A stretch of 64,000 nt of DNA from Baylisascaris procyonis (taxonomy: Eukaryota; Nematoda; Chromadorea; Rhabditida; Ascarididae), in NCBI GenBank assembly GCA_037389465.1, contig JAZARR010000212.1, forward strand, positions 1,258,001-1,322,000, in the 5' to 3' direction. Positions 43,353 to 64,000 of the stretch are shown here, in pieces. Every line of letters starts with the position of its first letter. The first letter of the stretch is position 1. The notes under the pieces are model-generated. The model did no database searches. It was not told the origin of the DNA and saw only the letters and a program-made list of their open reading frames with translations. The position numbers and the translations under genes are program-made.

Positions 43353-43490
43353 ATGGGTAAAGGCGGAACAACGGCAACCGACAGCCCTCCTGCAGAACGG
43401 CCTGCGAATGAGAATCCGGCCAACGATTCGAATATGCAGCCGGCCACTGTCCATCTGCTCGACGCTACCAAACAGATTTTCTACGTACCG
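43353..43490 (+). CDS. frm-1: FERM gene exon 1: N-terminus and first F1 strands
   Basis: This exon has 46 codons and ends in phase 0 at CCG|GTTAGT. The first ~30 residues are a polar leader rich in Pro, Asn and Glu. The end, [16 protein letters not shown], is the first beta hairpin of the FERM ubiquitin-like lobe. The ATG follows a splice acceptor by seven bases. Confidence 0.85.
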
Positions 43491-46400: not shown

Positions 46401-49400
46401 CAACACTCACTGACGATTTGACACGCTATCATCTGACTCTTCAGATTCGTCATGATGTCTATACTGGGAGGTAAAGATATTATGTTCGGGTGCATTTCCG
46501 TCGATGCTTTTCTTATAATAAAATGGGAATTAAGGTACTTTACGTTAACTACCGTCGAGTGTTTTCGGTGCTTTACGCATCGCTAGTAAAGGTTGGGAGG
46601 AAGTCTGAGGCATTTTTTGGTCATTTTTATTGATCCGCGTGCTGATTGTTCTAGGTAATAACTGCTGTTTTTGCACTTTGCTTTTATCACATTAAAATCT
46701 TACTTGGCAAAATCTTTAAAATTTGGTTAGCCCGCATATAGAAACTGTTCTTTCAGTTTATGAGCGGCAGTCTGATCCTTGGGCAAGATTAAGCGTGTGT
46801 CTCGAATGCATAGTTAAGGTGGATGCATTGAGTCAGCAGTGGGCATGCCTGCTGTATTGAGTGTTTTATAAGGAATGTGAGCTGTTTCCTAGCAGGGTAA
46901 ATTTTTCCTCGTTTATTGGTGTGCTTAACTGGTGGGAGTTCCACGCGCTGAAGCCACAACGTCGTTCAGGTTGATCGTAAAAGCGAGTTTGTGTGAAAGT
47001 ATGAGAAAAACAGCATTAAATTCTGTTGCATAGTGCTCATTAGGTGTTATGACAGTAATACGGTTGGGTGCTAGCAGAAATAAGCACGCATTTTCAAGGT
47101 ATGCCGAATGTAGTGCTTACGAATGTTGCCAACGTTTTGAAAAATGCGCCGGCTTAAAGAGAGTACAATTAGGGGCTAATTGGAGAAATACTTTGACGTC
47201 AGCTGTTACATTGTTTTTCGGCTACCTTTATTTCTTACTCAGAAACCACAATGGATGCTAAGAGAATTCTGTTAGCCAAATGTTTGAGAGTATCTTCTCC
47301 CGTCGATTCTTTTGCTTTGTTTTTTCGTCGTTGTTTGCCATCGTTGTCACGGAATCTTATATCACATTAATAGTGAATATGACATAATTATAACGATGTA
47401 GTCGAAATAAATAGCTGCTCAGAAATTAGCAGCTAAGGATGTTCAAAGATGCAGCACTAGCAAATAACCTGGTCGTTGCTGTTTCATTAAGAAGTTTGGT
47501 TGTGGGGGCGATGTGCCTCTAATTCACCTATAGCAATCATTTGTGTGAATTTTCCGGAGGATTGATATGGTGCTTTGATGAAGGTATATAGGCTACAATG
47601 ATATGAAGAGGCTGTAGTGCACTTTCTTCCGTCCGTACATGGTACTCTTGAAAGGAATAGCAGACGGGAATGCAATAGGCACGAACACACTCAATCGAAA
47701 TTAAAGTCTCTATGGCATTTCTGTTCATTCAGTAATTATGCAGGAGATTTTCAAGCGTTGTTTATCACGCTGGATTTTGACGGCGGATTTCTTCTGGGCA
47801 TCACTGCCTAATCACTTTAGGTTAGTGGAAAGGTTTTCCCAGCAGTGCTTTTATCTGTTGAATCTGCGCTGCAAAAATACATATCGTAAAGGCCGTTTTT
47901 GTTCATCATCTCCACATCAACACACTACATTACCAAAGCGAAAGGAATGTACTCTGAATCAGCCTGCTTTTCATCGACGTTGCCGTGTACTTCTCGTACA
48001 ATCGGGAATCTCTGGTTCGCGACTGGCAAGTGGCATATTTTGTATTCCGCACTGAGCCGATGCTCTATAACTCATCCCTTCGACCTCTAATGCCGTTGTT
48101 TTATGGCGACTTTTGAGATCGCTGTAAATTGGATTGTTGATTTGATTCGGGCAAAAAGCGTGCCTGCTGTACTAAGCACCTTCATCGCCAGATGGAATGG
48201 ATCTTGTAGGACAAATGCCCAAGTGCACTGTGAGCCACGATTTTGAAAATCATTTTCATGAACATTTACAGTATCATGAACAAAATTGATTGCTATTACA
48301 TCTTGGGGATGAAATGGTGAAGCGGGTGAAATTCGACAGGTGCTCAAATTGACGCCAAACTCTACCATGTGGCCATCTGTGTATGAAAACAAAATGGATA
48401 TTTTCAAATAATTCCAAATGTGTGTCGCTATCAATGAGAATGGTTTAATTAGTCGTTGGAAGTATGGTACAATTTTACTGGTTTAATTCTCGGTTCTGCA
48501 AAACGAACGTTACGTTCTGGCAGAGATTGTGCTTTATTGAATCTTAATGCTTCATAAAGGTTGCATGTGTGATTCAGGAGCTTTAAATACGGAACAATTT
48601 GCAGGCTTCCAGCAACTTTTGCCACACATGCATTGCTGGGCTCGTACATCGCTCAGGCGGAACGAGGCGATTTTCAGGATACAGCAGATTACGACGATTT
48701 TCTCAGAGATTGCCGTTTGGCACCAGTGCCATCCTCGGCCTTGTACGAAAAGATCAGAGAGCTGCATAAACAGCACAAGTAAGAAAGAGCTTCATATTTC
48801 TTAATGCCCTTTATTCACTTTTATGTGAAGATAAAAAGCAAGCGGTGGGAGTGCTAGAAGCTAAGAAAATTTGGAAGGGAACTTTCGAAACGAAGTTCGT
48901 CTCAGCTTTGGCCAGATAGAGCGTAGGGGCAGATGGAGATACTGAGTCAAATATATCAGTAACCTGCTAAGAAATGTTAAATTAAAGTAAGTTGTTTACA
49001 TTAAAGTCATATTTTGATACTTCAGAAAACTGTGTTTGATTTAGCAATAATGGTGGTTTAATCTGTAGTAACAGCACTGCGTGAAACATCTTGTACATGC
49101 AGTGAAGTTAGTATAGCAGTATTTTTTAAGACAATATACTGTCGCTCCATTGCCTTCGGTTAGGTCACTCAACATTGGCGTTGAGGGTCTAATTCGCAGC
49201 TGTTAGTACTGACACACTGCTGTCGTCTTCGATTTCACCGTAAACCTGCATGCATCTAAGTGCAGTGTATTTTAACTTACGTGGCTGAAGTAAAAAAATA
49301 AAGATTTAATGTCGCCATTGCTGCCGATATCTCGCAGCGGAATCGTGCTCAGCGGGAATGTTTCACAGCACAAAACTCGAGGCAATTCTGTCGCCTAGAG

Positions 49401-52400
49401 TTTTGTGATGACACGGTGATCGAACGCTCACGTGCAGTGTTGTCCTCCTGAAGTTTGTACTACTGCATGTTGGCTGAGTTCGGCGTCACTGACGTAGAGC
49501 TCTTTGCTAAAAGAACTGTCAGCCGGAAACAGCTGCGAATGAACAAAAAAGGGGTTTGTACAATGCAGAACTGTCTCGCTAACCGAGTTGTCATGCATTG
49601 TCGTCCGTTTGTTTTACGCAAAAAGTGGTGGGTCCTCTGTGATACTCATCGGATCCTCGTAAAGTTGGACTGGAGGCTTGATAGGGAGACTGATAACGGC
49701 TCTCTTTCTTAGTCTTGACGGAATAATAGCTGGGGGATTGTCGTCATTTTTGATCCTTTTCTTGTCAACCCACTGTGAAATTTTCGAGTAGATGGCGCTG
49801 TATAAACTAGCTTTGTTATCTGCCATTCTTTGCTTTATTTAACATTGATAGGGGAGAGTGAATTTGATCATTATTTTAATCTCGTTTTCAACACGAATTT
49901 TTTAGAGGTGAGACGCCAGCGGAAGCAGAATTGCACTATTTGGACAATGCCAAGAAGCTAAGCATGTATGGCGTCTTCCTGTTTCCTGCTAAGGTACGTG
50001 GTCTTTTTGCGTCGACGATCATAGTGACTGGGGATAGTAGTGTGAATATAGGCGTTCCCCTAAGTTTCTGAAACTGCTTTCTTTCCGTTTCTTCCTTTCA
50101 TTCGTTTCAGTGTTTGCGGTCTCAGAGCGTTTGATTTATATACGCATGTGATCTTGCCACTTCAGTATCTGTTGCTTATGAGCGTTTATCTATTTTTTGC
50201 ACCGATTGACCTAACGTACCATGTACAAATATGCATAACAAATCGAGCTATACGGAAGAAGTTGCACAAAAATCATTAACTACTAGTATCACCTTTTCTC
50301 CCTAGTTATCTTTTACCTGGGGGACGCATTCAGTTTTTCTCAGCATAGGCAGGTAGTTTTTTTTTTTTACAAATCTCTGCAGTGCCAAACGTTTAATGTA
50401 CCGACAAGTTGCACCCTTTTTTCGTTCATAAGTAAATGCTATCATTATCGCGTTTACTAATACAAAATTCCTGCTCAGAAGTGAGCACCCCTCACCGCCT
50501 TGTTGCAAGTAAAAATTTTGATGTTTAGATGATTCGTTTGGGCCGCTTTTTTATTCATGCATGATGGGGCGTTCTCGCGTAATTTTGGTTTTACTAGGAT
50601 ATTCTCTAACAAACCAGACCACCTATGAAAGTTGCGAACGTCAAGCGTTTCTATCTGCATTAAAAAAATGAGATTTCGCACAGAAACCAAAAATAAGTCT
50701 CGTTTTTCGTGTTTATTCCCACTAATTCTTCTCATTCTTTCATTGCTTTTATGTAGATGTTGAGTTCCTTCATCTCTACACCATAATCAAAAAGAAACTG
50801 TTGGTAATTATGGTATCCAAAGGAGTACTTACGATGGAAACATTCTTTTATGTCTTGCCTAGAAATTCTAAATCGTGCTCATCTACGATCGAAGTATAGT
50901 CAACAGAAATGTGACTTTCTTGCAGGATTCAAAAGGAACATCAGTTCACGTAGGCGTATGTGCCCACGGCATTAATGTCTACTGCGATCAGATCCGCGCC
51001 CACCGCTTCATCTGGCAAAATATCATCAAGATTGCTTACAGACGAAACACGTTCTCGATTAAATTGCAACCTGGCGAGGTTAGTGGTTGCAATTGTATAG
51101 TCCGATTGCGTTCCCTTCTGGTGGGTGTTGCGTTTGGCAAGTTGTAAGTAATATTACTGAGAATGGTATGGGATCACGATACGGGGCATCTGAAAGTGCG
51201 AGTTCAGTCTGGCCTAGCTTAGGCATAGGAAGTATTTTGAGAGATATCTCTTTCGGATGCATTCTGCCCGCATCGTTTATTGTCGTCGTTGCGCTTTCGC
51301 TTGTGATTCGTTCAAGTTCGTTCCCTGAAGGAATTAAAGGTTTTCCGGCGATAGTTTATTCCCCCCGGCATTGTATTTTTTACGGCTCGGATCAGCGCAC
51401 ATAGGTCTTTTGGAAAATCGGATGATGTTCCGAGCAGTTAGATAATGAACTACTGCTGCGTTCTGCCTCATGTGTTTATGCATACATTTGGGTGTGTTTA
51501 TGTGTATGTATATGTACATTTGTGTACATGGATGTTTTGCTTTATCATTCTAAACCGTTCTTCTGTGTTGCTGTCCTGTGACGGTAAGAACACAGATCCG
51601 AGGTAAACTATAGCGGGATTTTGTTTTGCAGTTGGATAGGAATGCGGTGCTTTTCCACCTTAAGGTGCCGGATTATGCCAGCGCAAAGCGCATCTGGAAA
51701 TGTGCTGTAGAGCATCATACGTTCTTCCGGTTCGTTTCTTTTATTTTTTCGATCGCGCACCCGGTTTATTTTGCTCAAGCGATTGAGGATCACTTGCGTT
51801 CTTCTGATGGTCGAAGATTGTTTCATTCGTAACTTTCAATGCTTTCGATGATCACTTCGGGGCATTTGAAAAAAAGTGGCATAACCATTTTTTGTGGAAT
51901 CACTGTTTCGCAGTATCGAGCATAGCTTTGTGTGCGACAGAATTCGCTATACGCTTGGAGCAATAATGGTTAGTAGCTCAGACTGCCCATCGTTATGCAT
52001 TAGCAAAATTGACCAACACGAAGTCTCGTGGTTAGGGCAATCATTGATATTGTGTGGTGATTATATATTTACCAGTTTTCTTCCTTAGCGTTAAAAATTC
52101 TTAAAAGTATCTAATTTAGATTGATCCAGCCGGACGAGAAGCCGCATAAGGGGCTGTTCAGATGGGGTTCAGGAAGATTCAGGTATCAAGGTAGAACCCA
52201 TTTTCAATCAAAGATGGCTTCGCAGATGTTCGATCACCCGGCGGCTACCGTTAAAAGATCTCATAGCGCTCGCTTGGCATCTCGAAGCGATGAAAATCGT
52301 GTGTCTTTCTTTACTGCAATTTTCTACTACAGCTATCGTTGGGATTTCGCATATCGCAGTTTACGATTAATCGTGCACTCCTGCCAAATCATTCTGAAAT

Positions 52401-55400
52401 ATTAACTTTATGCGATTTACCAATTCCGCATGTTTTTTATGGAGCAATGAGCCTTTACGATAGGGGGTTTTACCGGCAAATTTCGTTTATCATGAAAATT
52501 TTGTTTTGTCATCGACAGTTTGTAATGCTTTGGGCGCATGAAAAAGTTCTCTTCGATTCTGTAAGAGCGATAGGGAAGGTTTTAATAAGTGAACGTCACT
52601 GTTTTTTTCTCTCAAAGTTTTGAGTGTAGGGAGGCCAGGTAAAGAAAAGGGAGAAGACTTTTCGGGTTCTTACAGGTACTTGAACTAATCCAGCATCTTT
52701 TTTTTTTGTTATGAAAATCATCTAAAAATTTGTTCTGTAAGTAAATATTTGGCTCAGTAATTTTAAGTTCTGTAGCAGTCATGAACTGTAAAAAGAATAG
52801 CTCTCTCATCATATCTTGAATCCAGTTGTTCTTTTGCTGTAATTGCTGAATAAAATCTTGTTGGTTCCCTTGCATAAAAATGCTGAGATAAGGGTGCTGT
52901 CTAGGAATTTTTAAAAGTCACTGCTTGATTGTTCATTGAAATCGTTTTCAGTCGCGCCGGAAGCAGCGAAACATACCTCACCGCTTCATTACGCCGATGA
53001 TGGCACTTCACGTGACGTAAGTCTTTAAAGTAGCGTATTGTCATGAGAAATTTCGTTCCAAATAATCCTCTTATTAACTTACATCTATCTCGCATTAATG
53101 TGTGATATTCACAGAGAGCATGACCGATCAGAGTTTTGGGTTTCGAGGACTGAATAGGTTTACTGAATTCTGAGGACAAGGTAACTTTTGACTCTTTATC
53201 ATATTTTATGGGTTTAGATGAAATCAGTTAAAAAACTCTTCGACTTTGTCTCATATCATTAAAAAATGTGGCATATAACCGTAGCCTGTTCTGGTCACTC
53301 CATTTTCCTTCTTTTGCACATACTTTTCTTACTACCCCATTTTCCATCTCTTATACACATAACCTGTCATCAGCACTTCATTTTCTCCTTCTGTGGCGCA
53401 GGTAGCATGCTACGATCACTCCATTTTCTTATACTGACGCTCACAGCTTGATCTAATCGCTACATCCTCCTTATCTCGCACACATAGCTTGTCCTCATCA
53501 CTCTATTTTCCTCGTTCTTACGCCACGCAGCCTGTTACATTCAACCCGTTTTACTTCTTCTCTGGCACGCATAGCCTGTTGTAATCAATTCCTGACCTTC
53601 CCTTTTATTTCTCTTTTTTCTCTTTCATCTGAAATCGAATTTTGATGCTCCTTTTCGCAGTGGTATCTAATATTCTTGTTTCTTTAGCTAATTGTGTCAT
53701 TGTCTCTCATCCAGTCTCTCATTGTTTGTACCTAACTGGAGTATTGCCAGTGCTTTTTCTTGCGTTCCATAAAACGCAATTTATTCAAAAATGTACGTTT
53801 TCGTGTTGATTCAGATATGCTCAAAACCAGCAGTGAATATTTGCGGCGCTATTGGGAAGTCACAAGATTGCCTCCAGCCAGATGCAGCACACTTTAGAGC
53901 CGCTTCATCATTCTCATGAATTTCAAAAATCTTTTCCAGTGCACTTTCTCGGTTCTCAATATCTTACGTTGCTAAGCTGTGGCCTGTTTGCATTTTGCTG
54001 CGAACAATTTTCGGGGGATGAGGGACAGTGATTTATCGATTACTCCCCGGCGGCAAAAGGTGGAAGAAAACTCACTGCATGTATCAAAGATTACCGCTGC
54101 AGTTTTGCCGTCCAAAAAATTGTGAAATAAGAGGCTGTTGGTGCTTTTTTGTGTTGTTAATATGATATTCCTTTCAGCTGACGAGCACGCCTGAAAAGTC
54201 GTATACATTGCATTCGGTGGATACATCGGGCAAAAAAGATATGAAAAAGGTAGCGAAAACGAGCGAAGTTGAGGTGGGTGAATGCAATGATGCTATTTTC
54301 GATGGTTCTGCAGCATTGGTGCATGATGATTCCCGCTCTCCTCCTGCCGCATCTTTTGGCCATACTACTTACTCCTCTCCGCTTCGTTTTTCACCTTACT
54401 CTGCCCGAGTCTCGCAGACACCTCAGTCATTCCACGGCAGAGCACATCAAGAACCACGAAACAGTGCTAACGGCCAGCATGAAAGTCTAGGCTTTGAGCG
54501 ATCACAACCCATTCATAACGGGCCCGATGTTTCTGAACTTCGAAAGGAAGATGACCTTCAGTTTGGTCCATTGCATGACACTGTCGTTGTTTACCATCCT
54601 GGGCATTATGAAGAAATATCCAGAAGTGGGGGACCTATGCGTGAGCCTCCAATTGAAGCAGGCGATGATATTGTGTTCATTCCTCGTGGAAACTGGAAAT
54701 TAACGGTCACGAACACGAAACCTGGTGCCGTTGCAGGTTCTAATCTTGGTTCAAGTCTTCTGGAAAAGGGAAATGAGTTGGACAGTTGGCCAATTAAATA
54801 CTTCGTAAATGTATACCACTCAGGTTTCGAGAAGTACAGCGGTGGAAATAAAGATATTGATGATTTTGAGCGAGCAATATGGGAGGGTTCTGAAGAAGTC
54901 GTCAATTGGAAAGACATTGACAAGTCCAAGTACCCCCTCAAGAGTGACGTACTCGTTGAACCGGTAGTGCGAATGGAGCGAAGTACTGAGCTGCCAGCGG
55001 CGTCTCTGAGAGCCCATTCATCTGTCTATCACTGTGGCTACTCGTATCCGGTCACCGGCACCGATGATTCTCCTGAAGCGCGTCATCTCTCGGGAAAATG
55101 GTTGTGCTCTGATATCATTAAAACTTATGGAACATCTCGGATAGGCGGCCCGAAGCCGATGCGGGGAGAACAGATTGTGCGCGAAGGTCGCGAATCCGTT
55201 TTGAATGGTAACCGAGGGGATGATATTGTGCAGGTGCAACCATCTGGGGACTATAGCCATCTTCATCGGCCTTTCGCTTATGCGACGCATGGTGGCAAGG
55301 TCGAAGTAGTTGGGAAAGATGATGTTCGTCCAGAAACTTACGGTCTCCCGTCTACTTCATATGATGGTCCTTTAGAGAGTGTGAGTCGTGCCGAAGAAAT

Positions 55401-58400
55401 GTCGTCGACGCCCATCCGGGACCATGCATCCGTATATCATTCTGGAACGTCCACATCCAAACTCAAGAAACCTCGCATTCCTAAAATTCGTTTGGGCCTG
55501 AAAAGCAAGCAGGAGTACAACAGTTCCTCCTCAGAATTATCAGAGGACGAGAGCAGAGAAATAACAAATAGTGATAAACGGAAAAAGAAGGCAATAATTC
55601 ATATGCGAGATTTGCCTGCTAAGGCATCTGAAAAAGTCACTGCAGTCGAAAATGTGTACGATGCATCAGCGCCTCATCCATGTACTACATCTGAAAATGG
55701 TGGTGCTAAGTTGTTGTTCGCCAAAACGAAAGAGTATGATGCTGAGGATCTGAAAATACCCAAACATCGTCGTTTCGCTCACTCTTGCCATGAGGGTGAA
55801 GTAGAAGTGGTGGAAAAGGCTGATGTAAAGCCTGAAACTTACGGTCTTCCATCCACCTCTTACGAAGGCCCTCTGCAGAGTACAAAGCGTGATGAGGAGC
55901 TTGGTATGATTCCGATTCGCGACCATTCTTCGGTTTACCATTCTGGAATATCGTTTGTGAAGCCTAAAATTCCGAAGGTGGCTGTCAATGTAGGAGGGAA
56001 AACAAAGAAAGAGAGTTCTTCAGAAGAACCATCTGATAATGGAAGAGAAGATGCAGAAAAAACACTCAGGCATGCAAATTACAAAGAATCACAAAGAGAT
56101 GGTAAGAAAGTTGGCGAAAGCGGTGTCAGGTTGTTTTCATTTTGGCGTTCTTCTGGGCGCAAAACGAAGGATGACGATGAACAGCGTGAAACATCGTTTC
56201 AGAATGGCAGCACTTACCCAACGATAACTTCACAAGTTCACAGTGGGCCAGTTGATAGCACTGATAGATTTCCAGAGCTGGAGTCTACGCCCTTGAGAGC
56301 AAAAGTAAGCATTTATAACTCTGAGCAGACTGGACTTCCTGGAACCTGGACAGATTATCGCGTGTTTGAGCGAGCCATACATGAAGGCGATGTGGATTTT
56401 GTTGAGAAATCTGAAGTTAAACCCCAGTCATATGGTGTTTCTTGTGAGCCATATGTTGGACATTTCGAAAAAACGGCGCTACAAAGGGAACTTGTGTTTG
56501 TGCCACTGAAAGAACATTCAGCCAAATATCATTCAGGACAGTCATGGGGTCCAGCCGTTCAAAATGCAGAAGCAGATGAGACTGCACTTCACGAAAGCTT
56601 GGCTGGCATGGATAAAAGTAAGGATGGAGCAAGTGAATTGTTTTCTTCCTGGCTCGTGTCAGGCCGGAAGAGTATTTCGGCGCCCGTTGATGGGCATGGT
56701 TATCCTGTGAAAGTAGCGCAGGCTTATATCGGGCATGTTGACAATATTTTTCATACGGAGGATATCCAGCATGAGCCATTCACTATTGAGAGTATTAGAA
56801 AATCAGCAGAAGGGACTGTTATTGAACATGTTAGTGGCGAAACCACCAGAAAGGAAAAGACATCTGGTCTGCCGCCCATCTCCTGCGAGGAACATCTTGC
56901 AACGTTGGATAAAGGAAAAGACCTTCCTTCTGTTCCGTTTCGTGATCTTGCGACTGTATCATCCGGGCAGCAGAATGTAGGAAATCAGGATGGATCCGAA
57001 AAGCACGCAGCGGACAGAAGTGAGGGAAATGTCGATTATCACTCACTTGGGCAATCACCGCAAGGAAAAGTGGAGAGTAAAGAAACTGGCGGGCGCAGTG
57101 TTCCATGCGCTGTTGACTATCCAGTCATTACTTCACATGTTTATGCTGGGCCTCTGCAGAGTGTTTCTCGATCTAAAGATATTCCGTCTGAACCACTGCA
57201 CACTATTGTAACTGTTTATTCCAGTGACCAGCCAAAGCAGCTTGGAAAGCATCAGGGGCCACAAATCTTTCGTCATGTTGTCCTCGAAGGTGATGTTGAG
57301 ATTATTGAGAAAGGTGATGTGAACCTTATTTCTTACAAATTATCATCTTCTCCCTATCAAGGTCCATTAGAAACCGTTTATCGGGAAGAGGAATTGTCTT
57401 CCACACCTATACGTGACCATTCTTCGGTGTACCATTCCGGTATTTCGTTTGTCAAATTCAAGAAACCGAGGTTGCCGAAGTTTGGCTTCGGACTTAAACG
57501 AACGAGGCGCGAGGAAAGTTCATCTGGTGAGTCGTTGAGTGGTGATGAAGCTAATACCGAGGGGGGTGGTCAACAAATGATTCGGGCTGAGGGCTGTGTG
57601 AGTGAAAAAACTAGCAGTTGTGACGATGGCCACTTCTCATTGTGGCGTCCTCATGGATGGAGAAGAAAAGCCTCTGATGGAGCAGCGGAGCTTGACATCA
57701 GTACCGAGCGTTCCGTTCTACCAGGTAAAGAATTGCCAGTTGGTAGCATTGAACGGTCGGAAGATATGGCCACTCAGCCGCTAAATATCCGTGTCGTGTC
57801 AGAGCAAGTAAGCAAACCGGGACTTCGAGATCGGCTAAAAGATTATCGTTTATTCATCCATGCACGCCATGATGGTGATGTGGAGTTTGTTGAAAAAGTG
57901 AACGTGAAAACAGAATCGTACAATTTGTCTTCCATCCCTTACGGCGGAGCTTTAGAGCACACAGAACGAGACGAAGATCTTCCCTTCACGCCTGTTCGTG
58001 AATACGCCGCCGTTTATCACTCGGGACTATCATTTGGTAAAATTAGGAAACCTAAACTTCAAGTTACGCGCTTCGCTTTGATGAAAAGGGATACTGAGGA
58101 AACATCTAGTGAGTTATCGAGTGGAGAAGAGACTGATGAAGGTAAGAGAAGTGCCGGGGGTTTGTTCTCTTTCTGGCGCTCGTCCGATCGGAGGCCAAAA
58201 ACTGACGAAGTCGTCCAGAAGAAAGTTGCTGAAAAAGCGTCTGTCACCTGCAGCAGTCCTGCTCATGGCACTGAAAAATCGAACGAAATGGAAACAGGGA
58301 AGTGGAACACTGGAATTGAAAAACACCTGAAACGACCGAAACTGAGAGAACGTTTAGGGGACTACCGTCTTTTCGGCCGCATTCACTGCGACGGCGAAGT

Positions 58401-61400
58401 TGAAGTAATTGAAAAAGGCGATGTGAACAAAGAATCTTACAGGCTGCAGCTGATACCTTACAAGGGTCCGCTAGAATGCATTCATCGTGAAGAAGAGCTC
58501 TCGTCTACTCCAATCCGTGACTACTCCTCCGTTTACCATCCTGGGCGGTCTTACATCAAGGCCAAGAAAGCCATATCCTCAGCCATGGTTGGAAAAATGT
58601 CATCTACTGAATCGTCAAGCGACGAAAGCACTGACGAGAGCAAGAAAAAAGGAAACAAAGATGTTCGTAGCGGACTATTTGCTTTTTGGCGATCGTCAGA
58701 CCGGAAGAAGAAAAGCGAAGAACCTAGTGCTGCTTCAATAGCTGATGATGCCCGTCCAAAACAGCCGACCGAAGTGTGTAGTGGCTTGGTTTGGGAAACG
58801 CTGAAACAAGAAGATATGGAATCGGGACCATGCTTGGCAGCAGGTGGTGTGCCCCCTAACACGAAACCAAAGCTTCGGCAGCGTTTGGGCGATTACAGGC
58901 TATTTGGTCATTTCAGTTACGGTGGCAAAACCGAAATTATAGACAAAAAAGATATAAAACCGGAATCTTACAAGCTTTCCTCAATTCCTTACGATGGTGT
59001 TCTTTTAAACGACTTTCCGGTCAAAGATCTTGAATTCACACCGATTCACGATTGCTCGGCCATTTATCACTCTGGATTATCATACAAGAGAACGAAGAAA
59101 GCGAAATTACCGAAGTTGCATGCCACCTTGCAAAGAAGTCGTGAGGAATCATCAAGTGAGTCAACAAGTGACGAAGGCACGGGTAAAAATGAAGATGATG
59201 CTAAAGGTGTTAAGGAAGGCGGCGGTGGTTTTTTCTCATTTTGGAGATCTCCCATGCGGAAGTCAGAAGAAGCAGAGGTCACACAGATGATAACTGCAAA
59301 CAACGCGCAACAGACGGTGCCACAAGTACCACACAGAGAACCAATCGATAGCACTGCAAAAACCAAAGAGATGGAGTCACAGGCGTGGCGGTATGAATCT
59401 GGGACGCCATTACCACAACGACAAAAGCTTCGAGATCGCTTAGCTGACTATCGTCTGTTTGGTCGTGTTTTCCATGAAGGCGAAGAGGACACTGTCAGCA
59501 AACATGATATCAACTTACAGTCATACAAGCTGTCGTCGGTGCCTTATGAAGGCGATCTAGAGGATATGCCAAAGGAAGAAGAGCTGCTGTTCGCGCCCAT
59601 TCGTGAGCATTCGTCCGTTTATCATTCAGGGAAGTCTTACGTCAGAACGAAACGTGCAAAGCCTTCCGCTGAAAGTGAGGGATCGAAAGGGAACAAAGTC
59701 GAAGAATCTTCCAGTGAGTCTTCAGGCGACGAAAATACCAGCTTCAGCATGAAAAAAGCTTTACTTTATCCGCGGCGACCATTGAGTGATGCTGGTAAGC
59801 GCAAAGAAGGTCATGGCATGTTTTCATTCTGGCGTGCGTCAGATGGAAGAACGAAAGATGCTGAGGCATTAAGCGGACTGGTTTCCGCTGGAAATTATCC
59901 CACGATGCAGTCAAAACGCTATAGTGGGCCAGTTTATGACACTGAGAAGACGGAAGAAATAAAAACGGAGTCCTGGAATGTTGAGAGTGATGTAGCTGCT
60001 ACAAAGCGACCGAAGATGAGAGAACGTTTGAACAATTACCGCCTCTTTCGTCATTTTGCGCATGAGGGTGAGGTTGATGTCGTAGACAAAATGGATGTGA
60101 AGCGGGAATCGTACAGAGTGCCACTGGGTCGTTATGAAGGCGAATTGTGGAATATTCAGCGAGATAATGAGCTTTCTCCCCTGCCTCTGGGAGATTATGC
60201 TTCTGTTTATCATCCGGGAACGTCATATATTAAATTGAAGCGAAAGAAAGCTCCTCGAGCAAGTGTAGATGGAACAACAAAAGGTTCTGAGTCGTCCAGT
60301 GAATCTTCAAGTGAAAGCGTTGATGAAAAGCAAACAGTGAAAGAAGTGAAAGGTGCGAGTAGCAGCGTCTTTTCATTCTGGCGTGCAGCGGAACGGAAAG
60401 CTAAAGAAGATGCGAAATCGAGACGTCTTCCCGTCCAAGAAGCTCATTCATTGGTACCATCTTCCTTCACTGGCCCAGTAAATACTATGAAAAAGACCGA
60501 GGAGATGAGTGCTACGCCGTTAGCAACGATGCCGAAAGTACATAGGATAACGAAGCCTAGGCTTCGCGAAAGATTGAGTAACTACCGTCTTTTCGGCCAC
60601 GCAGTTCATGAAGGAGACATCGATATTATCGAGAAGGAAGATGTGAAACCGGAAACTTACGGTTTATCTACTTTGCCATTTGAGGGCGCTTTAGAGAGTA
60701 TTAGCCATGAGCGCGACCTATCATTTTCACCAATTAGTGAACATTCATCAATTTATCATCCGGGCACATCGTTCGTGAGAAGCAAAAAAGCCAGTTCAGT
60801 AAAAGTTGGTGTTGGATTCATAAGGCATGAAAACGAAGAGCCATCGAGTGAGTCTTCCAGTGAAGAGGAAATCGGAAAGGGCAAGAAAACAGCTTTGTTA
60901 CACCTCAAAAGTGCTTCAACAGAAGAAAACAAAAGAAGCGACGGTAACAGCGGTCTGTTTTCTTTCTGGCGGTCGTCCAGTTCGAAAGCTAAGGATGAAA
61001 ATATCGTCTATAAAGCTGGCCCCAGCACGTCTTTGCAGGAGGTGTCAAAGGAACCTGCTAGCGATCAGGAGACGAAACCAGTACCAGAGCCTTCTGATAT
61101 TCATTTATCCAAGAGGCCAGGTTTAAAAGAGCGTACAAGGGACTATCGTTTGTTTGGCAGGGCGATTGTCGGTGGCGACACAGAAATTACTGAGAAATCG
61201 AATGTGAATCCAGAAAGTTACAAATTATCCTCGGAATTGTACAATGGACCACTTGAGCATATGAGCTGTGACCATGATATCTCTTTCGAGCCGATTCGTG
61301 ACTATTCCTCTGTTTATCATCCTGGTACGTCTTACGTGAAGACAAAGAAAGCGCTTTCTGCCCGGTTGAAGTTCTTTGGCAAGGATAAAGATAGTGAAGA

Positions 61401-64000
61401 AGAAAGTGAATCTTCGGATGATGATGAGCATGAGATGACCAAAACTGGTGCTGCCCCTCATGTAAAAGACGATTATCCAGAAGTTAGTAGGAGTAATGAA
61501 GCAACTGGCGGCTTGTTCTCTTTCTGGCGCGCATCTGAGCGAAAAGCAAAAGAACAGAAAGCTTCCTCTAGAATCCCTTACCCTGGGGCTCCCACCACAG
61601 AATTTGCAGAATCAGCCACTCATCCAGTTCATGAAATCATGGCGGCAAAAGAAATGACGTCTAAGCCACAAAACACGAATCAGCGGCGTGCGAAGACGCC
61701 AACGCTTCGCGAACGCCTTGGCGATTATCGTTTGTTTGGCCGTACCATTCATGGCGGCGAAGAAGACATCGTTGAAAAACATAATGTAAATCCAGAATCA
61801 TACAAGCTGTCAAGTGATCCTTACAGTGGAAAATTAGAAGAAATCACACTTGCTCAAGAACTTTCGTTCTCGCCAGTTCGTGACCACAGCTCTATTTATC
61901 ATCCTGGAGTATCCTATATAAAGGCAAAGAAGCAGCTACAACAGCCGGGTTCATTGGCGAAGAAAGCAGATGAACAGTCCGTTAGTGAATCGTCAGGTGA
62001 TGAAGAACAGGCTCAGAAAAAACAGAAAGCTGTTCTTCATATAAAAGACTGGAAAGCTGCGGGTGATGCAAGTAAGGGAAAAGCGGGTGGTCTTTTCTCG
62101 TTTTGGCGGTTGTCTGATCGGAAAGCAGAAAGTGTAGGTGGCGCCCAGAAAGCGTCTGCGGTTGAGAAGCAAATTTCGGTGGAATCGGTAGACGACTCGG
62201 GCCGAGAAGGCAATACGCCACAGACCGGAGAGATGGTGTCACAGCTTCTGAATGAAAAAGTGGTTGGAATGCAGTCTAGCCGACCAAAGCTTCGCGAACG
62301 TCTCGCTGATTATCGGCTGTTTCGTCGTGTAGTTTATTACGGTGATCAGGAGTTCATTGAGAGAGATAACGTGAGACCAGAAACGTACAATTTGTCTTCA
62401 GTCCCATTCACTGGAGTCTTGGAGCGAACTGAGCGAGAAGAAGAGCTTGAATTCTATCCAATTCGAGATCATTCGTCTATTTATCATCTTGGCACGTCTT
62501 ACTTGAAAGGTAAGAAAGGGAGTAGCAAGTTGGCATGGAAAGAAAAAAAGAAAATTGTTGGTGATGAATCAACGAGTGAATCCTCAAGTCCTGAAAGTGA
62601 TGATGATAATAAGAAAGATGGAGCGACTGGCGATAAAATCAAGGGAACCACAGGTGGTTTGCTATCATTTTGTCGTACCTCTGAGCGAGTTGGAAAAAAA
62701 TCCGATGCGCATCTGAAGTCCGCTTCGGATATAGAACCCCGTCCTTATGCAGCTCCGGTAAATGACATTGGTCCGGTGGACGAAACTGTCCGAACTAAGG
62801 AGTTCAGATCCGGACCTCTCCCTGCTGGCATCCGAACTGATCGCTTAGATCATCCGAGGCTTCGAGATAGGATTAACGACTACCGTTTGTTTGGCCGGTC
62901 TTGCCATGAAGGCGAAGTGACTGTTATTGAAAAGAGCGCTGTTGCGCCCGAAAGTTATGGTTTATCGACAGAGGAGTACCATGGCCCACTTGAAACAGTG
63001 ACTTGCGTAGAGGAACTGCCGTTCAGACCTATTCGTGACTGCACAACTGTGTATCATCCAGGAAGGTCGTTCATCAGGCGAGCACCAAGGCAACCTGAGA
63101 AATTCTCGGTGGAGAAAAGTTCTTCAGAATTTTCTATCAGTTCCTCAGCAGAAGACGAATCTTTGGAAACAAAAGCGCCACAAAAGGAATCAAAGAAGGT
63201 TGATGGCTCGACAGGCACAAAAGCGGATGGGAAAGCGGGCTTCTTATCGTTTTGGCGCTACTCTGAGCGAAAATCAAAAGCGGATTCAGCAAAATCGGGC
63301 AAAGATGTAACACCCGATGTAGTATCTTCTCTTCCATCTCAACATGCACAAGTTGTGACTGTGGATAGTATCCAGCGATCCGGAGAAATTGTTTATGAGC
63401 CATTACGCATGGAAGTTGATGTATATCATTCTGGCTTGCCGCAAGAAACGATGGATGCTAATAAGTCGCACGCATTCACTCATGCAACTCATAAAGGTGA
63501 AGTTGAGTTTGTTGAAAAGGCTGACGTCAGACCAGAGACCTACGGGCTTTCCCGCGCTAATTACGAAGGGCCGCTGTCTAGAGTTGAAAAAGAGCACGAA
63601 TTGGATCCCGCACCTATTCGACAATATGCATCTACCTATCATCCCGGACAGTCTTACGTCAAGTCTAAAAAGCGCTTGCCATTATCAGGCTTCAGAAGAA
63701 AAGAAGATTACGAATCAAGCACATCGGACGGGGAGGATGGTAAAGGTAACGAAATTAAGAAAACCGATAAACACCTGCTTGACGGTGGCAAGAAAAGTGG
63801 CGGCAAGGCCGATAAGGGACCTTTTGGCGTCCTGTCACTTTGGCGTCCCGGAGTGAGCATGTCAAAAGACATTAGTGAAACTGTCACCGATAATGTTCAG
63901 AAAATCGAGTTTCCTGTTGAGTGCACTTCCGATGATTCCGTTTCGGTTCCAAAGGCAAACATATTAGACCACTCTGAGGAAATACGCAGTGACATCGACC
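43353..64000 (+). CDS. frm-1: Protein 4.1/FRM-1-like FERM protein with giant repeat exon (3' partial)
   Basis: This is a membrane-cytoskeleton adaptor of the protein 4.1 family, whose FERM domain binds cytoplasmic tails of membrane proteins and phosphoinositides under the plasma membrane. Coding exons are 43353-43490, 45497-45601, 45928-45970, 46350-46470, 48605-48778, 49906-49993, 50926-51078, 51632-51729, 52120-52298, 52952-53016 and 54178 to the window end. The first ten total 1164 bases (388 codons) and every junction keeps phase. Residues about 34-120 are the F1 lobe, about 120-225 F2, about 225-325 F3, then a FERM-adjacent region ([13 protein letters not shown]). The last exon adds at least 3274 codons of repeats with no stop. 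No spectrin-actin-binding domain was recognised before the edge. The symbol rests on family resemblance to the nematode 4.1 homologue. One intron seems to use a GC donor. Confidence 0.85.
43491..45496 (+). other. Intron 1 of the FERM gene
   Basis: About 2 kb between GTTAGT and a TTTTTAG acceptor. It is AT-rich, and no gene or repeat is recognised inside. Confidence 0.7.
45497..45601 (+). CDS. frm-1: FERM gene exon 2: F1 lobe helix
   Basis: This exon has 35 codons, phase 0 at both ends, an acceptor GTTTTTAG-type and a donor CGG|GTGAGT. It encodes [24 protein letters not shown], in which the pattern L-x-x-V-x-x-x-L-x-L-x-E-x-x-Y-F-G-L is the protein 4.1 family F1 signature. It joins exon 1 directly (YVP then KKAEG) as in other 4.1 proteins. 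Confidence 0.9.
45928..45970 (+). CDS. frm-1: FERM gene exon 3: short F1/F2 linker with apparent GC donor
   Basis: This exon has 43 bases: [14 protein letters not shown] plus one base. The W...D..K.I.KQ.KG pattern is typical of the F1 end in 4.1 proteins. The next exon requires one leftover base, which puts the donor at AAAG|GCTGGT, a GC rather than a GT. The nearby GT at 45975 would break the frame. Confidence 0.8.
46350..46470 (+). CDS. frm-1: FERM gene exon 4: F1 to F2
   Basis: The acceptor TGTTTTCAG is followed by two bases completing Gly, then [16 protein letters not shown], the highly conserved '[10 protein letters not shown]' stretch of 4.1 FERM domains, then [17 protein letters not shown], the first F2 helix. 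The donor AG|GTAAAG leaves phase 2. Confidence 0.9.
46471..48604 (+). other. Intron 4 of the FERM gene
   Basis: About 2.1 kb from GTAAAG to TTTGCAG. It contains a minus-strand protein-like open stretch at 48090-48376, described separately. A second acceptor (GTGATTCAG at 48577) would give a frame-incompatible exon and is rejected. Confidence 0.7.
48090..48376 (-). CDS. Protein-like minus-strand stretch nested in FERM intron 4
   Basis: I do not recognise it. It is open on the minus strand, preceded by a good acceptor (TTTTCATACACAG, ending opposite 48377). It encodes [19 protein letters not shown], then [18 protein letters not shown] and [17 protein letters not shown], which looks more like real protein than chance translation of AT-rich DNA. 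A possible donor follows at AAG|GTGCTT (48180). It may be a nested gene exon, a pseudogene or a transposon piece. No second exon was found. Confidence 0.28.
48605..48778 (+). CDS. frm-1: FERM gene exon 5: F2 lobe
   Basis: One base completes Arg, then [19 protein letters not shown] and [20 protein letters not shown] follow, matching the F2 acyl-CoA-binding-protein-like helices of 4.1 proteins (P-C/A-x-F-x-T-x-A-L-L-G-S-Y). The end is IRELHKQHK. The acceptor is AATTTGCAG and the donor AA|GTAAGA. Confidence 0.9.
48779..49905 (+). other. Intron 5 of the FERM gene
   Basis: About 1.1 kb with consensus ends (GTAAGA, TTTTTTAG). Nothing else is recognised. Confidence 0.7.
49906..49993 (+). CDS. frm-1: FERM gene exon 6: end of F2
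   Basis: The sequence [23 protein letters not shown] matches the conserved 4.1 pattern 'G-x-x-P-A-E-A-E-x-x-x-L-x-x-A-x-x-L-x-x-Y-G-V'. One leading base completes Lys, and the donor AAG|GTACGT is phase 0. Confidence 0.9.
49994..50925 (+). other. Intron 6 of the FERM gene
   Basis: 0.9 kb from GTACGT to TTGCAG. It is AT-rich and no feature is seen inside. Confidence 0.7.
50926..51078 (+). CDS. frm-1: FERM gene exon 7: F3 lobe (PH/PTB-like) first half
   Basis: This exon has 51 codons, phase 0 at both ends. It encodes the F3 strands [14 protein letters not shown], then [22 protein letters not shown]; the F-x-W-x-x-I-x-K-I-x-Y-R-R/K pattern is diagnostic of the FERM C-lobe. The acceptor is CTTGCAG and the donor GAG|GTTAGT. 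Confidence 0.9.
51632..51729 (+). CDS. frm-1: FERM gene exon 8: F3 lobe second half
   Basis: It encodes [21 protein letters not shown] and then AVEHHTFF, ending in the W-K-x-x-V/A-E-H-H-T-F-F-R helix that closes the FERM domain. It ends in phase 2 (CG|GTTCGT). Confidence 0.9.
52120..52298 (+). CDS. frm-1: FERM gene exon 9: FERM-adjacent region
   Basis: After the FERM domain comes [20 protein letters not shown], the FERM-adjacent pattern (S/G-x-F-R-Y-x-G-R-T) that carries phosphorylation sites in 4.1 proteins, then [14 protein letters not shown]. The preferred donor is AATC|GTGTGT (phase 1) because it keeps the next exon in frame. CGT|GTGTCT would not. Confidence 0.85.
52952..53016 (+). CDS. 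frm-1: FERM gene exon 10: short linker exon
   Basis: This exon has two bases plus 21 codons ([21 protein letters not shown]) between a TTTTCAG acceptor and a GAC|GTAAGT donor. It is supported by phase on both sides. Another reading frame is also open, so this exon is less certain than its neighbours. Confidence 0.7.
53017..54177 (+). other. Intron 10 of the FERM gene, before the giant exon
   Basis: About 1.2 kb from GTAAGT to CTTTCAG. It carries the minisatellite at 53284-53618. Because it precedes the giant exon, it is where skipping or inclusion of the repeat region would be controlled. Confidence 0.7.
53284..53618 (+). repeat. Degenerate minisatellite, eight units of ~41 bases
   Basis: Eight successive units of 40-44 bases have a common pattern: C(C/T)TGT near the start, ATCACT(C), CATTTTC, a pyrimidine tract with CTTCTT, then GCACACATAG or GCACGCATAG. 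Copies differ by substitutions and small gaps. The pyrimidine-rich strand is the sense strand of the FERM intron. Confidence 0.75.
54178..64000 (+). CDS. frm-1: FERM gene exon 11: giant repeat exon, open to the window end
   Basis: After a CCTTTCAG acceptor the frame stays open for 9823 bases. I translated every codon and found no stop. Its first ~360 codons are mostly unique ([20 protein letters not shown]..., a Ser/Pro-rich stretch) with three isolated YHxG words at 54592, 54814 and 55027. From about 55260 a ~185-residue unit repeats about 16 times. No membrane segment or enzyme motif is visible. The sequence is polar and highly charged, with serine/acid clusters, so it is likely extended. 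Several strong internal donor-like words (56102, 57725, 58142, 59795, 62510) could allow shorter isoforms. The end lies beyond the window. Confidence 0.85.
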   Translation, partial: MTSTPEKSYTLHSVDTSGKKDMKKVAKTSEVEVGECNDAIFDGSAALVHDDSRSPPAASFGHTTYSSPLRFSPYSARVSQTPQSFHGRAHQEPRNSANGQHESLGFERSQPIHNGPDVSELRKEDDLQFGPLHDTVVVYHPGHYEEISRSGGPMREPPIEAGDDIVFIPRGNWKLTVTNTKPGAVAGSNLGSSLLEKGNELDSWPIKYFVNVYHSGFEKYSGGNKDIDDFERAIWEGSEEVVNWKDIDKSKYPLKSDVLVEPVVRMERSTELPAASLRAHSSVYHCGYSYPVTGTDDSPEARHLSGKWLCSDIIKTYGTSRIGGPKPMRGEQIVREGRESVLNGNRGDDIVQVQPSGDYSHLHRPFAYATHGGKVEVVGKDDVRPETYGLPSTSYDGPLESVSRAEEMSSTPIRDHASVYHSGTSTSKLKKPRIPKIRLGLKSKQEYNSSSSELSEDESREITNSDKRKKKAIIHMRDLPAKASEKVTAVENVYDASAPHPCTTSENGGAKLLFAKTKEYDAEDLKIPKHRRFAHSCHEGEVEVVEKADVKPETYGLPSTSYEGPLQSTKRDEELGMIPIRDHSSVYHSGISFVKPKIPKVAVNVGGKTKKESSSEEPSDNGREDAEKTLRHANYKESQRDGKKVGESGVRLFSFWRSSGRKTKDDDEQRETSFQNGSTYPTITSQVHSGPVDSTDRFPELESTPLRAKVSIYNSEQTGLPGTWTDYRVFERAIHEGDVDFVEKSEVKPQSYGVSCEPYVGHFEKTALQRELVFVPLKEHSAKYHSGQSWGPAVQNAEADETALHESLAGMDKSKDGASELFSSWLVSGRKSISAPVDGHGYPVKVAQAYIGHVDNIFHTEDIQHEPFTIESIRKSAEGTVIEHVSGETTRKEKTSGLPPISCEEHLATLDKGKDLPSVPFRDLATVSSGQQNVGNQDGSEKHAADRSEGNVDYHSLGQSPQGKVESKETGGRSVPCAVDYPVITSHVYAGPLQSVSRSKDIPSEPLHTIVTVYSSDQPKQLGKHQGPQIFRHVVLEGDVEIIEKGDVNLISYKLSSSPYQGPLETVYREEELSSTPIRDHSSVYHSGISFVKFKKPRLPKFGFGLKRTRREESSSGESLSGDEANTEGGGQQMIRAEGCVSEKTSSCDDGHFSLWRPHGWRRKASDGAAELDISTERSVLPGKELPVGSIERSEDMATQPLNIRVVSEQVSKPGLRDRLKDYRLFIHARHDGDVEFVEKVNVKTESYNLSSIPYGGALEHTERDEDLPFTPVREYAAVYHSGLSFGKIRKPKLQVTRFALMKRDTEETSSELSSGEETDEGKRSAGGLFSFWRSSDRRPKTDEVVQKKVAEKASVTCSSPAHGTEKSNEMETGKWNTGIEKHLKRPKLRERLGDYRLFGRIHCDGEVEVIEKGDVNKESYRLQLIPYKGPLECIHREEELSSTPIRDYSSVYHPGRSYIKAKKAISSAMVGKMSSTESSSDESTDESKKKGNKDVRSGLFAFWRSSDRKKKSEEPSAASIADDARPKQPTEVCSGLVWETLKQEDMESGPCLAAGGVPPNTKPKLRQRLGDYRLFGHFSYGGKTEIIDKKDIKPESYKLSSIPYDGVLLNDFPVKDLEFTPIHDCSAIYHSGLSYKRTKKAKLPKLHATLQRSREESSSESTSDEGTGKNEDDAKGVKEGGGGFFSFWRSPMRKSEEAEVTQMITANNAQQTVPQVPHREPIDSTAKTKEMESQAWRYESGTPLPQRQKLRDRLADYRLFGRVFHEGEEDTVSKHDINLQSYKLSSVPYEGDLEDMPKEEELLFAPIREHSSVYHSGKSYVRTKRAKPSAESEGSKGNKVEESSSESSGDENTSFSMKKALLYPRRPLSDAGKRKEGHGMFSFWRASDGRTKDAEALSGLVSAGNYPTMQSKRYSGPVYDTEKTEEIKTESWNVESDVAATKRPKMRERLNNYRLFRHFAHEGEVDVVDKMDVKRESYRVPLGRYEGELWNIQRDNELSPLPLGDYASVYHPGTSYIKLKRKKAPRASVDGTTKGSESSSESSSESVDEKQTVKEVKGASSSVFSFWRAAERKAKEDAKSRRLPVQEAHSLVPSSFTGPVNTMKKTEEMSATPLATMPKVHRITKPRLRERLSNYRLFGHAVHEGDIDIIEKEDVKPETYGLSTLPFEGALESISHERDLSFSPISEHSSIYHPGTSFVRSKKASSVKVGVGFIRHENEEPSSESSSEEEIGKGKKTALLHLKSASTEENKRSDGNSGLFSFWRSSSSKAKDENIVYKAGPSTSLQEVSKEPASDQETKPVPEPSDIHLSKRPGLKERTRDYRLFGRAIVGGDTEITEKSNVNPESYKLSSELYNGPLEHMSCDHDISFEPIRDYSSVYHPGTSYVKTKKALSARLKFFGKDKDSEEESESSDDDEHEMTKTGAAPHVKDDYPEVSRSNEATGGLFSFWRASERKAKEQKASSRIPYPGAPTTEFAESATHPVHEIMAAKEMTSKPQNTNQRRAKTPTLRERLGDYRLFGRTIHGGEEDIVEKHNVNPESYKLSSDPYSGKLEEITLAQELSFSPVRDHSSIYHPGVSYIKAKKQLQQPGSLAKKADEQSVSESSGDEEQAQKKQKAVLHIKDWKAAGDASKGKAGGLFSFWRLSDRKAESVGGAQKASAVEKQISVESVDDSGREGNTPQTGEMVSQLLNEKVVGMQSSRPKLRERLADYRLFRRVVYYGDQEFIERDNVRPETYNLSSVPFTGVLERTEREEELEFYPIRDHSSIYHLGTSYLKGKKGSSKLAWKEKKKIVGDESTSESSSPESDDDNKKDGATGDKIKGTTGGLLSFCRTSERVGKKSDAHLKSASDIEPRPYAAPVNDIGPVDETVRTKEFRSGPLPAGIRTDRLDHPRLRDRINDYRLFGRSCHEGEVTVIEKSAVAPESYGLSTEEYHGPLETVTCVEELPFRPIRDCTTVYHPGRSFIRRAPRQPEKFSVEKSSSEFSISSSAEDESLETKAPQKESKKVDGSTGTKADGKAGFLSFWRYSERKSKADSAKSGKDVTPDVVSSLPSQHAQVVTVDSIQRSGEIVYEPLRMEVDVYHSGLPQETMDANKSHAFTHATHKGEVEFVEKADVRPETYGLSRANYEGPLSRVEKEHELDPAPIRQYASTYHPGQSYVKSKKRLPLSGFRRKEDYESSTSDGEDGKGNEIKKTDKHLLDGGKKSGGKADKGPFGVLSLWRPGVSMSKDISETVTDNVQKIEFPVECTSDDSVSVPKANILDHSEEIRSDID
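55261..64000 (+). repeat. frm-1: Coding tandem array of ~16 units, about 520-590 bases each
   Basis: Each unit reads, in order: (K)LRERL-x-[24 protein letters not shown], KLSSx[27 protein letters not shown](T)SY, a basic patch (KKAKLPK), a Ser/Glu cluster (SSSESSSGDE type), then [13 protein letters not shown] and a variable linker. The Tyr of the VYHxG word lies at 55435, 55936, 56527, 57430, 58015, 58534, 59065, 59620, 60208, 60754, 61315, 61897, 62482, 63052 and 63637; a degenerate copy (VSSG) is at about 56959. Spacings are all multiples of three, from 432 to 591 bases. The array continues beyond the window. The first two and the last visible units lack a clear DYRLF word. Confidence 0.9.
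56134..63846 (+). repeat. frm-1: FSFWR motif series within the array
   Basis: A hydrophobic-aromatic word FSFWR, usually followed by (S/A)S(D/E)RK, recurs once per unit at 56134, 58165, 59233, 59821, 60370, 60958, 61516 and 62095. Variants are FSSWL (56641), FSLWR (57634), FAFWR (58678), LSFCR (62665, Trp replaced), LSFWR (63244) and LSLWR (63832). It stands alone in an otherwise charged, disordered-looking linker, which suggests a short binding or membrane-touching motif. The function is unknown. Confidence 0.85.

What the first reader, a model, noticed from the sequence alone, without database searches (positions are those of the whole stretch)
54178..64000. Giant uninterrupted exon fused in frame to a protein 4.1-type FERM domain
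A single exon of at least 9.8 kb with no stop follows ten small FERM exons in matching phase. Typical protein 4.1 proteins are far shorter after the FERM and FERM-adjacent regions. Because the frame has neither a clear start nor an end in the window, simple ORF finding would miss it entirely and report only antisense fragments.
Basis: partly seen in the sequence, partly recalled or inferred. Interest (0 to 1): 0.9.

Follow-up and report, generated by a model that had tools for sequence, protein, structure and literature searches.

The report
Giant repeat-tailed nematode protein 4.1
A roundworm gene for a membrane-skeleton linker of the protein 4.1 family has an unbroken coding stretch of at least 9.8 kb behind it, predicted to be one exon of the gene about 11.9 kb long, which encodes a repeat-filled tail also found in predicted proteins of other nematodes, and it is likely an optional exon that would turn an ordinary linker into a giant multi-docking scaffold.

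Summary
From 54178 the frame is open for 3,274 codons to the window edge and joins, in phase, ten upstream exons coding the FERM lobes and the FERM-adjacent region (a model; no RNA). Predicted proteins of 4,253-5,561 aa in Parascaris, Toxocara, Anisakis, Steinernema, Aphelenchoides, Caenorhabditis sp. 36 and C. elegans join a FERM head to a homologous tail; the Parascaris model uses the same junction. Filarial relatives are shorter (1,619-2,391 aa). The tail is an array of diverged units of about 190 aa, 18 motif copies in the window, with a 'YxGxL..EL..PI..SxVYHxGxS' core and, in 9 of 15 aligned units, a strict 'FxFW' aromatic-basic box. Cores evolve more slowly than linkers. The exon most likely ends about 2 kb beyond the window; both ends look phase 0, so skipping it would leave an ordinary protein 4.1. 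In C. elegans, ten 203-aa units match '609-base tandem repeats' that a splicing paper counted as intronic, so the array is likely optional there. Best reading: an optional scaffold tail, like a giant-ankyrin exon but on protein 4.1. The motif's partner is unknown. Eight paper searches showed no description of this tail.

The parts
43353..43490 (+). exon 1, start codon and N-terminus of the FERM head
   Evidence: tblastn with Parascaris P0003; junction model
45497..45601 (+). exon 2, FERM_N
45928..45970 (+). exon 3, FERM_N end; following intron begins GC instead of GT
46350..46470 (+). exon 4, FERM_M
48605..48778 (+). exon 5, FERM_M
49906..49993 (+). exon 6, FERM_M/FERM_C boundary
50926..51078 (+). 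exon 7, FERM_C
51632..51729 (+). exon 8, FERM_C
52120..52298 (+). exon 9, end of FERM_C and FERM-adjacent (FA) region
52952..53016 (+). exon 10, linker, ends in phase 0 with donor GTAAGT
54178..64000 (+). giant exon 11 (runs off the window), 3,274 codons seen, predicted total about 3,950 codons
   Evidence: end inferred from P0002 and P0004, which read on past R(L/I)TQ
55225..56904 (+). three N-terminal repeat units of 167-197 aa (boundaries about 55225, 55726, 56317); further motif hits begin near 54529, 54850 and 57130
   Evidence: motif model and alignment
57223..63999 (+). twelve repeat units of 173-196 aa with the YxGxL...VYHxGxS core, the last cut by the window end; strict FxFW box in 8 of these 12 and in one of the three N-terminal units

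Best explanation
This is a nematode protein 4.1 gene (FRM-1 type) whose FERM-coding exons are predicted to splice into a giant repeat-coding exon, likely an optional cassette, so that one gene would make both an ordinary short linker and a giant scaffold. Shown: the exon is open and in phase with a FERM-FA head, and homologous tails follow FERM heads in predicted proteins of other nematodes. Inferred: the FERM-FA head holds the protein at the membrane on adhesion-receptor tails; the long, probably disordered tail offers about twenty copies of one short docking motif to a partner not yet known; the aromatic-basic boxes touch membrane lipid; the C-terminal 4.1 domain, outside this window, anchors the far end. 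Copy number would set reach and avidity.
For: Open, phased exon model and FERM/FA domains. FERM head plus homologous tail in one predicted protein in relatives: Parascaris 4,676 aa, Toxocara 4,253, Anisakis 4,528, Steinernema 4,369, Caenorhabditis sp. 36 5,235, C. elegans 4,541, Aphelenchoides 5,314 and 5,561; shorter in Dirofilaria 2,287 and Loa 2,391. Core motif copies at i-E < 1e-3: 18 in the window, 21 Parascaris, 23 Toxocara, 17 Anisakis, 34 Steinernema hermaphroditum, 18 C. elegans, 5-6 in three filaria; a control set of 20 shuffles, the reversed tail and the FERM head gave 13 hits up to 10, the best at 0.17. Motif profiles of six other lineages match the window's at hhalign probability 99.3-100; six column-shuffled controls gave 2.0 or less. 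Identity to the window in cores against the remaining tail: 0.88/0.80 (P0002), 0.83/0.74 (Parascaris), 0.65/0.50 (Toxocara), 0.50/0.33 (Anisakis); aromatic box 0.95/0.94/0.78/0.73. Best-matching units keep order: 18 of 18 against Parascaris, 17 of 18 against Toxocara with one tie. One unit gave a low-confidence model, pLDDT 55, pTM 0.15, consistent with disorder. Cassette: phase 0 at the 5' end; P0002 and P0004 read VRILCLLA after TQ where P0003 and P0005 continue differently, so a phase-0 donor after TQ is likely. Ten 203-aa units in C. elegans equal the ten 609-base tandem repeats that PMC4039745 (passages) found in introns flanking alternate exons, in frm-1. FRM-1 was recovered near the neurexin intracellular domain by proximity labelling (PMC10802952, passage).
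Against: No RNA evidence for this species. The 3' end of the exon and the C-terminal domain lie outside the window. No partner for the motif is known: no Pfam domain passes its cut-off in the tail and no solved structure matches by sequence. The low-confidence model rests on only 15 sequences, so disorder is not proven. Runs of Ser/Glu/Asp are about as well kept as the cores (0.93/0.90/0.66/0.52), so slow evolution is not unique to the supposed docking core. Steinernema nearly lacks the aromatic-basic box (2 copies, shuffle mean 0.36), so that part is not universal, and net charge after the box is only mildly positive in the window (+1.1 per 12 residues, background -0.1). Filaria work with 5-6 copies, so a large number is not needed everywhere. 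The near-identical C. elegans array (98-99%) could also reflect a tolerated spacer. PMC11524483 (passage) says that the muscleblind-dependent frm-1 isoforms differ little relative to gene size, so that splicing event may not be the giant exon.
Confidence: 0.62

Rival explanations
1. Passive spacer: the tail is only a long disordered tether whose length matters, and the repeats are a by-product of growth by duplication.
For: Low-confidence unit model consistent with disorder; copy number varies from 5 to 34; C. elegans has a recent, nearly identical array. frm-1 coding sequence is listed among abundant sources of circular DNA (PMC5633380, passage), though the passage does not say that the array is the source.
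Against: Cores evolve more slowly than the remaining tail in four of four comparisons, and the core consensus is kept across lineages; a spacer needs neither. Units keep their identity and order against Parascaris and Toxocara.
Confidence: 0.25
2. Two genes: a short protein 4.1 gene ending near exon 10 and a separate downstream gene for the repeat protein, joined only by annotation.
For: No transcript data for this species; one relative (S. carpocapsae P0010, 2,961 aa) is predicted without a FERM domain.
Against: In-frame stop at 54163 just before the exon, no ATG codon before residue 22, phase match and good splice sites; 17 of the 21 residues before that ATG are identical in Parascaris; fused predictions in nine genera, one of them with the FA part only.
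Confidence: 0.05
3. Constitutive rather than optional: the giant exon is always included and there is no short isoform in ascaridids.
For: The three named ascaridid models with a FERM head (Parascaris univalens, Toxocara, Anisakis) include the tail, though the length filter of that search would hide short isoforms.
Against: The exon appears to be phase 0 at both ends; in C. elegans the array was counted in introns flanking alternate exons (PMC4039745). Skipping it would leave 738 aa in Parascaris, by subtraction from P0003.
Confidence: 0.08

Closest known systems
C. elegans P0009, 4,541 aa, taken here to be long FRM-1 (ZK270.2)
   Same: FERM head, repeat tail with the same core motif, 4.1 C-terminal domain. 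The source names it 'Moesin/ezrin/radixin homolog 1'; that it is FRM-1 is inferred from the 4.1 domain and from the 203-aa/609-base match
   Different: Its FA match is below the Pfam cut-off (21.8 against 30.6 bits). Its tail is dominated by ten 203-aa units 98-99% alike, whereas neighbouring units in the window's main array are 36-49% alike and keep their order in relatives
Vertebrate protein 4.1 (4.1R/N/G/B) and Drosophila Coracle (recalled)
   Same: FERM plus FA head; CTD present in relatives of the window's gene
   Different: Those proteins are far shorter (recalled); no spectrin-actin binding domain was reported by Pfam in P0003, P0006 or P0009
Giant ankyrins (vertebrate AnkG, Drosophila Ank2, C. 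elegans UNC-44) with one very long neuronal exon (PMC5135030, passages)
   Same: Membrane-skeleton adaptor with a long single exon rich in Ser, Glu and Lys, in some species repeat-bearing
   Different: No ankyrin, ZU5 or UPA domain; the six typical residues make up 47.6% against the published >55%; a search that allowed proteins up to about 7,600 residues returned no ankyrin, but it also missed C. elegans P0009, so this is weak evidence
MARCKS effector domain (recalled resemblance only)
   Same: Aromatic-basic 'FSF' box with serines
   Different: One weakly basic box per unit, no test of lipid binding

Membership tests
protein 4.1 family (FRM-1/Coracle/4.1R type) | FERM N, M and C lobes | tested here: met
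   388-aa modelled head, E 6e-21, 4e-18, 6e-23, all above cut-off
protein 4.1 family (FRM-1/Coracle/4.1R type) | FERM-adjacent (FA) region | tested here: met
   E 2.9e-9, 37.2 bits, cut-off 30.6
protein 4.1 family (FRM-1/Coracle/4.1R type) | 4.1 C-terminal domain (PF05902) | not testable with these tools
   lies beyond the window; present in relatives P0003, P0006, P0009
protein 4.1 family (FRM-1/Coracle/4.1R type) | spectrin-actin binding domain (typical of vertebrate 4.1R, not of all members; recalled) | tested here: inconclusive
   none reported in P0003, P0006 (E up to 1) or P0009 (E up to 0.1); the region may lie beyond the window
ezrin/radixin/moesin (name given by sources to P0003, P0006, P0009) | ERM C-terminal domain | tested here: not met
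   tested in relatives only: not reported for P0003, P0006, P0009, which carry 4_1_CTD instead
giant repeat tail of nematode FRM-1-type proteins | tandem core motif at i-E < 1e-3 after a FERM-FA head in the same frame | tested here: met
   18 copies in 3,274 residues, phased to the head
giant ankyrin | ankyrin repeats, ZU5-ZU5-UPA, death domain | tested here: not met
   Pfam scans of the visible tail and the head
giant ankyrin | long-exon composition: S,E,T,D,K,P above 55% (PMC5135030, passage) | tested here: not met
   47.6% in the window tail, 52.8% in the C. elegans P0009 tail (summed)

The most novel reading that the evidence does not exclude
Nematodes built a giant protein 4.1 in parallel with giant ankyrin: an optional exon of about 12 kb that carries a previously undescribed nematode docking module in 5 to 34 copies, recruits one partner at high valency along the membrane skeleton, and is tuned in length between lineages and, in Caenorhabditis, still being re-amplified.
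Probability: 0.4. Interest if true: 0.75.

Novelty: new variant of a known kind. Interest (0 to 1): 0.6.

Why it matters
Giant exons on ankyrin are a classic case of how neurons turn a general adaptor into a specialised long-range scaffold. Protein 4.1 belongs to the same membrane skeleton, and here it appears to have done something similar with an unrelated repeat that is kept across the nematode lineages sampled. C. elegans carries it, so the function of the tail can be tested directly in a laboratory strain. It also recasts a published 'intronic' 609-base repeat as likely coding sequence of a giant isoform, and shows that database names such as 'Moesin/ezrin/radixin homolog 1' hide a 4.1 protein.

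Tried and rejected
Separate gene with its own start: rejected on phase, upstream stop, no ATG codon before residue 22, and fused relatives. A shared tail with giant ankyrin UNC-44: a Steinernema query whose length range allows about 2,400-7,600 residues returned 9 proteins up to E 10; 7 are named or domain-marked as FERM proteins, the others are P0002 and P0010, and none is an ankyrin. That search also missed C. elegans P0009 and Heligmosomoides P0008, which one search had found, and one search missed the Aphelenchoides proteins; these searches need shared exact words, so a distant link to ankyrin is not excluded. CREG beta-barrel match in the tail (E 0.014, 15.8 bits against a cut-off of 27): discarded as chance. 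IMD and katanin-MIT matches in the C. elegans array: no stretch passes on its own, discarded. A fold for the unit: AlphaFold2 gave pLDDT 55 and pTM 0.15, so no fold search was made. Solved structures: 0 matches up to E 10. Tandem Repeats Finder: 0 arrays at DNA level in 54000-64000, which fits strongly diverged units. Shorter or non-nematode relatives: a 1,500-aa query returned 4 proteins up to E 1, all nematode. Plasmid collection, first 2 kb of the exon: no match, as expected. The hhalign comparison used units picked by the window-derived model, so its probabilities lean upward; the searches do not have that bias.

Full report
What was claimed and whether it is there. The frame 54166-63999 on the + strand is open for 3,278 codons and leaves the window. 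Base shuffles of the same DNA gave at most 241 open codons in 200 trials, and the other five frames carry 113 to 293 stops. GC rises from 0.39 in the preceding 2 kb to 0.45-0.47 here.

Gene model. tblastn with the Parascaris relative P0003 places each piece of the FERM head in order. A junction search that required AG acceptors and GT or GC donors gives exons 43353-43490, 45497-45601, 45928-45970, 46350-46470, 48605-48778, 49906-49993, 50926-51078, 51632-51729, 52120-52298, 52952-53016 and 54178 onward, stop-free and in phase, with a 388-residue head. The head passes Pfam cut-offs for the three FERM lobes and FA. The third intron begins GC. The giant exon has an in-frame stop just upstream at 54163 and its first ATG codon is residue 22, so it is not expected to start a protein by itself.

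Relatives. A search with the whole tail scored 7,966 candidates and returned 8 proteins: P0002 (source 'lgn', no organism named, 3,992 aa, 83% identical over 99%), Parascaris (77% over 100%), Toxocara (54% over 100%), Anisakis (34% over 97%), Steinernema, Caenorhabditis sp. 36, Heligmosomoides and C. elegans (24% over 48%). Six of the eight carry FERM lobes (Toxocara without the N lobe), Heligmosomoides carries the FA part, and P0002 has no domain. A second search from Steinernema (5,266 candidates, 9 proteins up to E 10) added S. carpocapsae and two Aphelenchoides proteins but did not return C. elegans or Heligmosomoides. A third, for shorter relatives (7,980 candidates, 4 proteins up to E 1), gave a Parascaris equorum protein of 1,470 aa and three filarial proteins of 1,619 to 2,391 aa. 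All named hits are nematodes. These word-based searches each missed relatives that another found, so absence elsewhere is not shown.

Where the exon ends. P0002 starts at the first ATG codon of the exon and reads on through RRLTQ into VRILCLLA..., and Toxocara P0004 reads RRITQ-VRILCLLA, whereas Parascaris and Anisakis continue RLTQ-SVAK and RITQ-TVTK. The simplest reading is a splice donor directly after the Q codon. That puts the exon at about 3,950 codons, 11.85 kb, phase 0 at both ends. Skipping it would leave 738 residues in Parascaris, by subtraction. This part is inferred.

Anatomy of the tail. A motif model built from 15 window copies finds 18 copies in the window tail at i-E below 1e-3. 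Counts in relatives: P0002 21, Parascaris univalens 21, Toxocara 23, Anisakis 17, Steinernema hermaphroditum 34, S. carpocapsae 30, Caenorhabditis sp. 36 20, Heligmosomoides 16, C. elegans 18, Aphelenchoides 21 and 21, Parascaris equorum 12, filaria 5, 5 and 6. E-values are for that small set of sequences; counts, with fewer sequences, were equal or one to two higher. The control set of 20 shuffles, the reversed tail and the FERM head gave 13 hits up to 10, the best at 0.17. In the alignment of 15 window units, nine columns are invariant (F17, G24, Y39, G48, P63, Y71, H72, G74, S76); an acidic serine stretch follows in most, and a strict FxFW box in 9 of 15, with looser forms such as LLSFCR in others. 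The pattern FxF[WFL] occurs 9 times in the window tail against a shuffle mean of 0.2 and maximum of 2, 14 times in C. elegans, 24 in Aphelenchoides P0011, but only 2 in Steinernema and 2 each in the two filaria tested.

Selection. Using cores defined inside the window alone (975 residues), identity to orthologues is higher in cores than in the remaining tail in four of four comparisons; Ser/Glu/Asp runs and the aromatic box are also better kept than the remainder. Best-matching units keep their order against Parascaris (18 of 18) and Toxocara (17 of 18, one tie), and mostly against Anisakis (17 of 18 in non-decreasing order, several sharing a best match). Two of the 18 units overlap, being 31 residues apart. 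Against Steinernema and C. elegans no such order is seen. In C. elegans ten units spaced by 203 residues are 98-99% identical to their neighbours. The array has thus stayed differentiated in the window's lineage and its near relatives and was recently homogenised in C. elegans.

Link to published observations. PMC4039745 (passages read) reports ten tandem repeats of 609 bases in C. elegans frm-1, with no other BLAST occurrence in the genome, in an analysis of introns flanking alternate exons taken from WormBase. 203 residues times three is 609. So the 'intronic' repeat and the coding array are most likely the same thing, and the array would be spliced out in some annotated isoforms. PMC11524483 (passage) lists frm-1 among genes whose isoforms change in muscleblind mutants and calls its product large, but says that the isoforms differ little relative to gene size. 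PMC5633380 (passage) lists frm-1 among coding regions that give abundant circular DNA, without naming the part. PMC10802952 (passage) recovers FRM-1 near the neurexin intracellular domain, and PMC7557474 (passages) presumes FRM-1 to anchor beta-heavy spectrin. PMC4642926 (passages) used only the FERM part of FRM-1. In the eight paper searches made I saw no paper that describes the tail as a protein. I saw listings and passages, not whole papers, and the library holds open-licence papers only.

Mechanism. The head's family role, binding receptor tails at the membrane, is recalled knowledge of FERM proteins. The unit gave no confident fold, which is consistent with disorder but rests on 15 sequences. 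A long chain with slow-evolving repeated cores fits a docking array better than a plain tether. The aromatic-basic box resembles lipid-contact segments such as that of MARCKS; that resemblance is recalled and untested. Optional inclusion is inferred from phase and from C. elegans. The partner is unknown, which is the main gap.

Verdict. The gene model is firm on sequence grounds but lacks RNA. Predicted giant proteins of this kind are already in databases, several under a misleading name. What is new here is the reading of the tail as a conserved array across nematodes, its symmetric-cassette anatomy, and the reconciliation with the 609-base repeat.

Noticed in passing
window 4692-6149 (-): Open fragments with a gag-type aspartyl protease (PF13975, E 2e-6, just above cut-off) and DUF7083 (E 5e-11) suggest a retroelement remnant on the minus strand.
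   Followed up: partly
window 45971-46349: The third intron begins GC rather than GT. The Anisakis model P0005 lacks the exon before it, which might be an annotation error caused by the unusual donor.
   Followed up: partly
window 1-64000: No tRNA by ARAGORN and no Rfam family at the gathering score.
   Followed up: no
P0009 residues 1288-3320: C. elegans P0009 holds ten 203-aa units 98-99% identical to their neighbours, which probably makes this exon hard to assemble and prone to length change.
   Followed up: partly
P0014, P0015, P0016: Filarial relatives keep only 5-6 core copies and are 1,619-2,391 aa long, a natural short-tail comparison.
   Followed up: partly
P0003, P0006, P0009: Sources call these 'Moesin/ezrin/radixin homolog 1' although they carry the 4.1 C-terminal domain and no ERM C-terminal domain was reported.
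   Followed up: yes
window, skew change near 26-28 kb: GC skew turns from mostly negative to mostly positive around 26-28 kb, which could mark a change of gene strand upstream of this gene.
   Followed up: no
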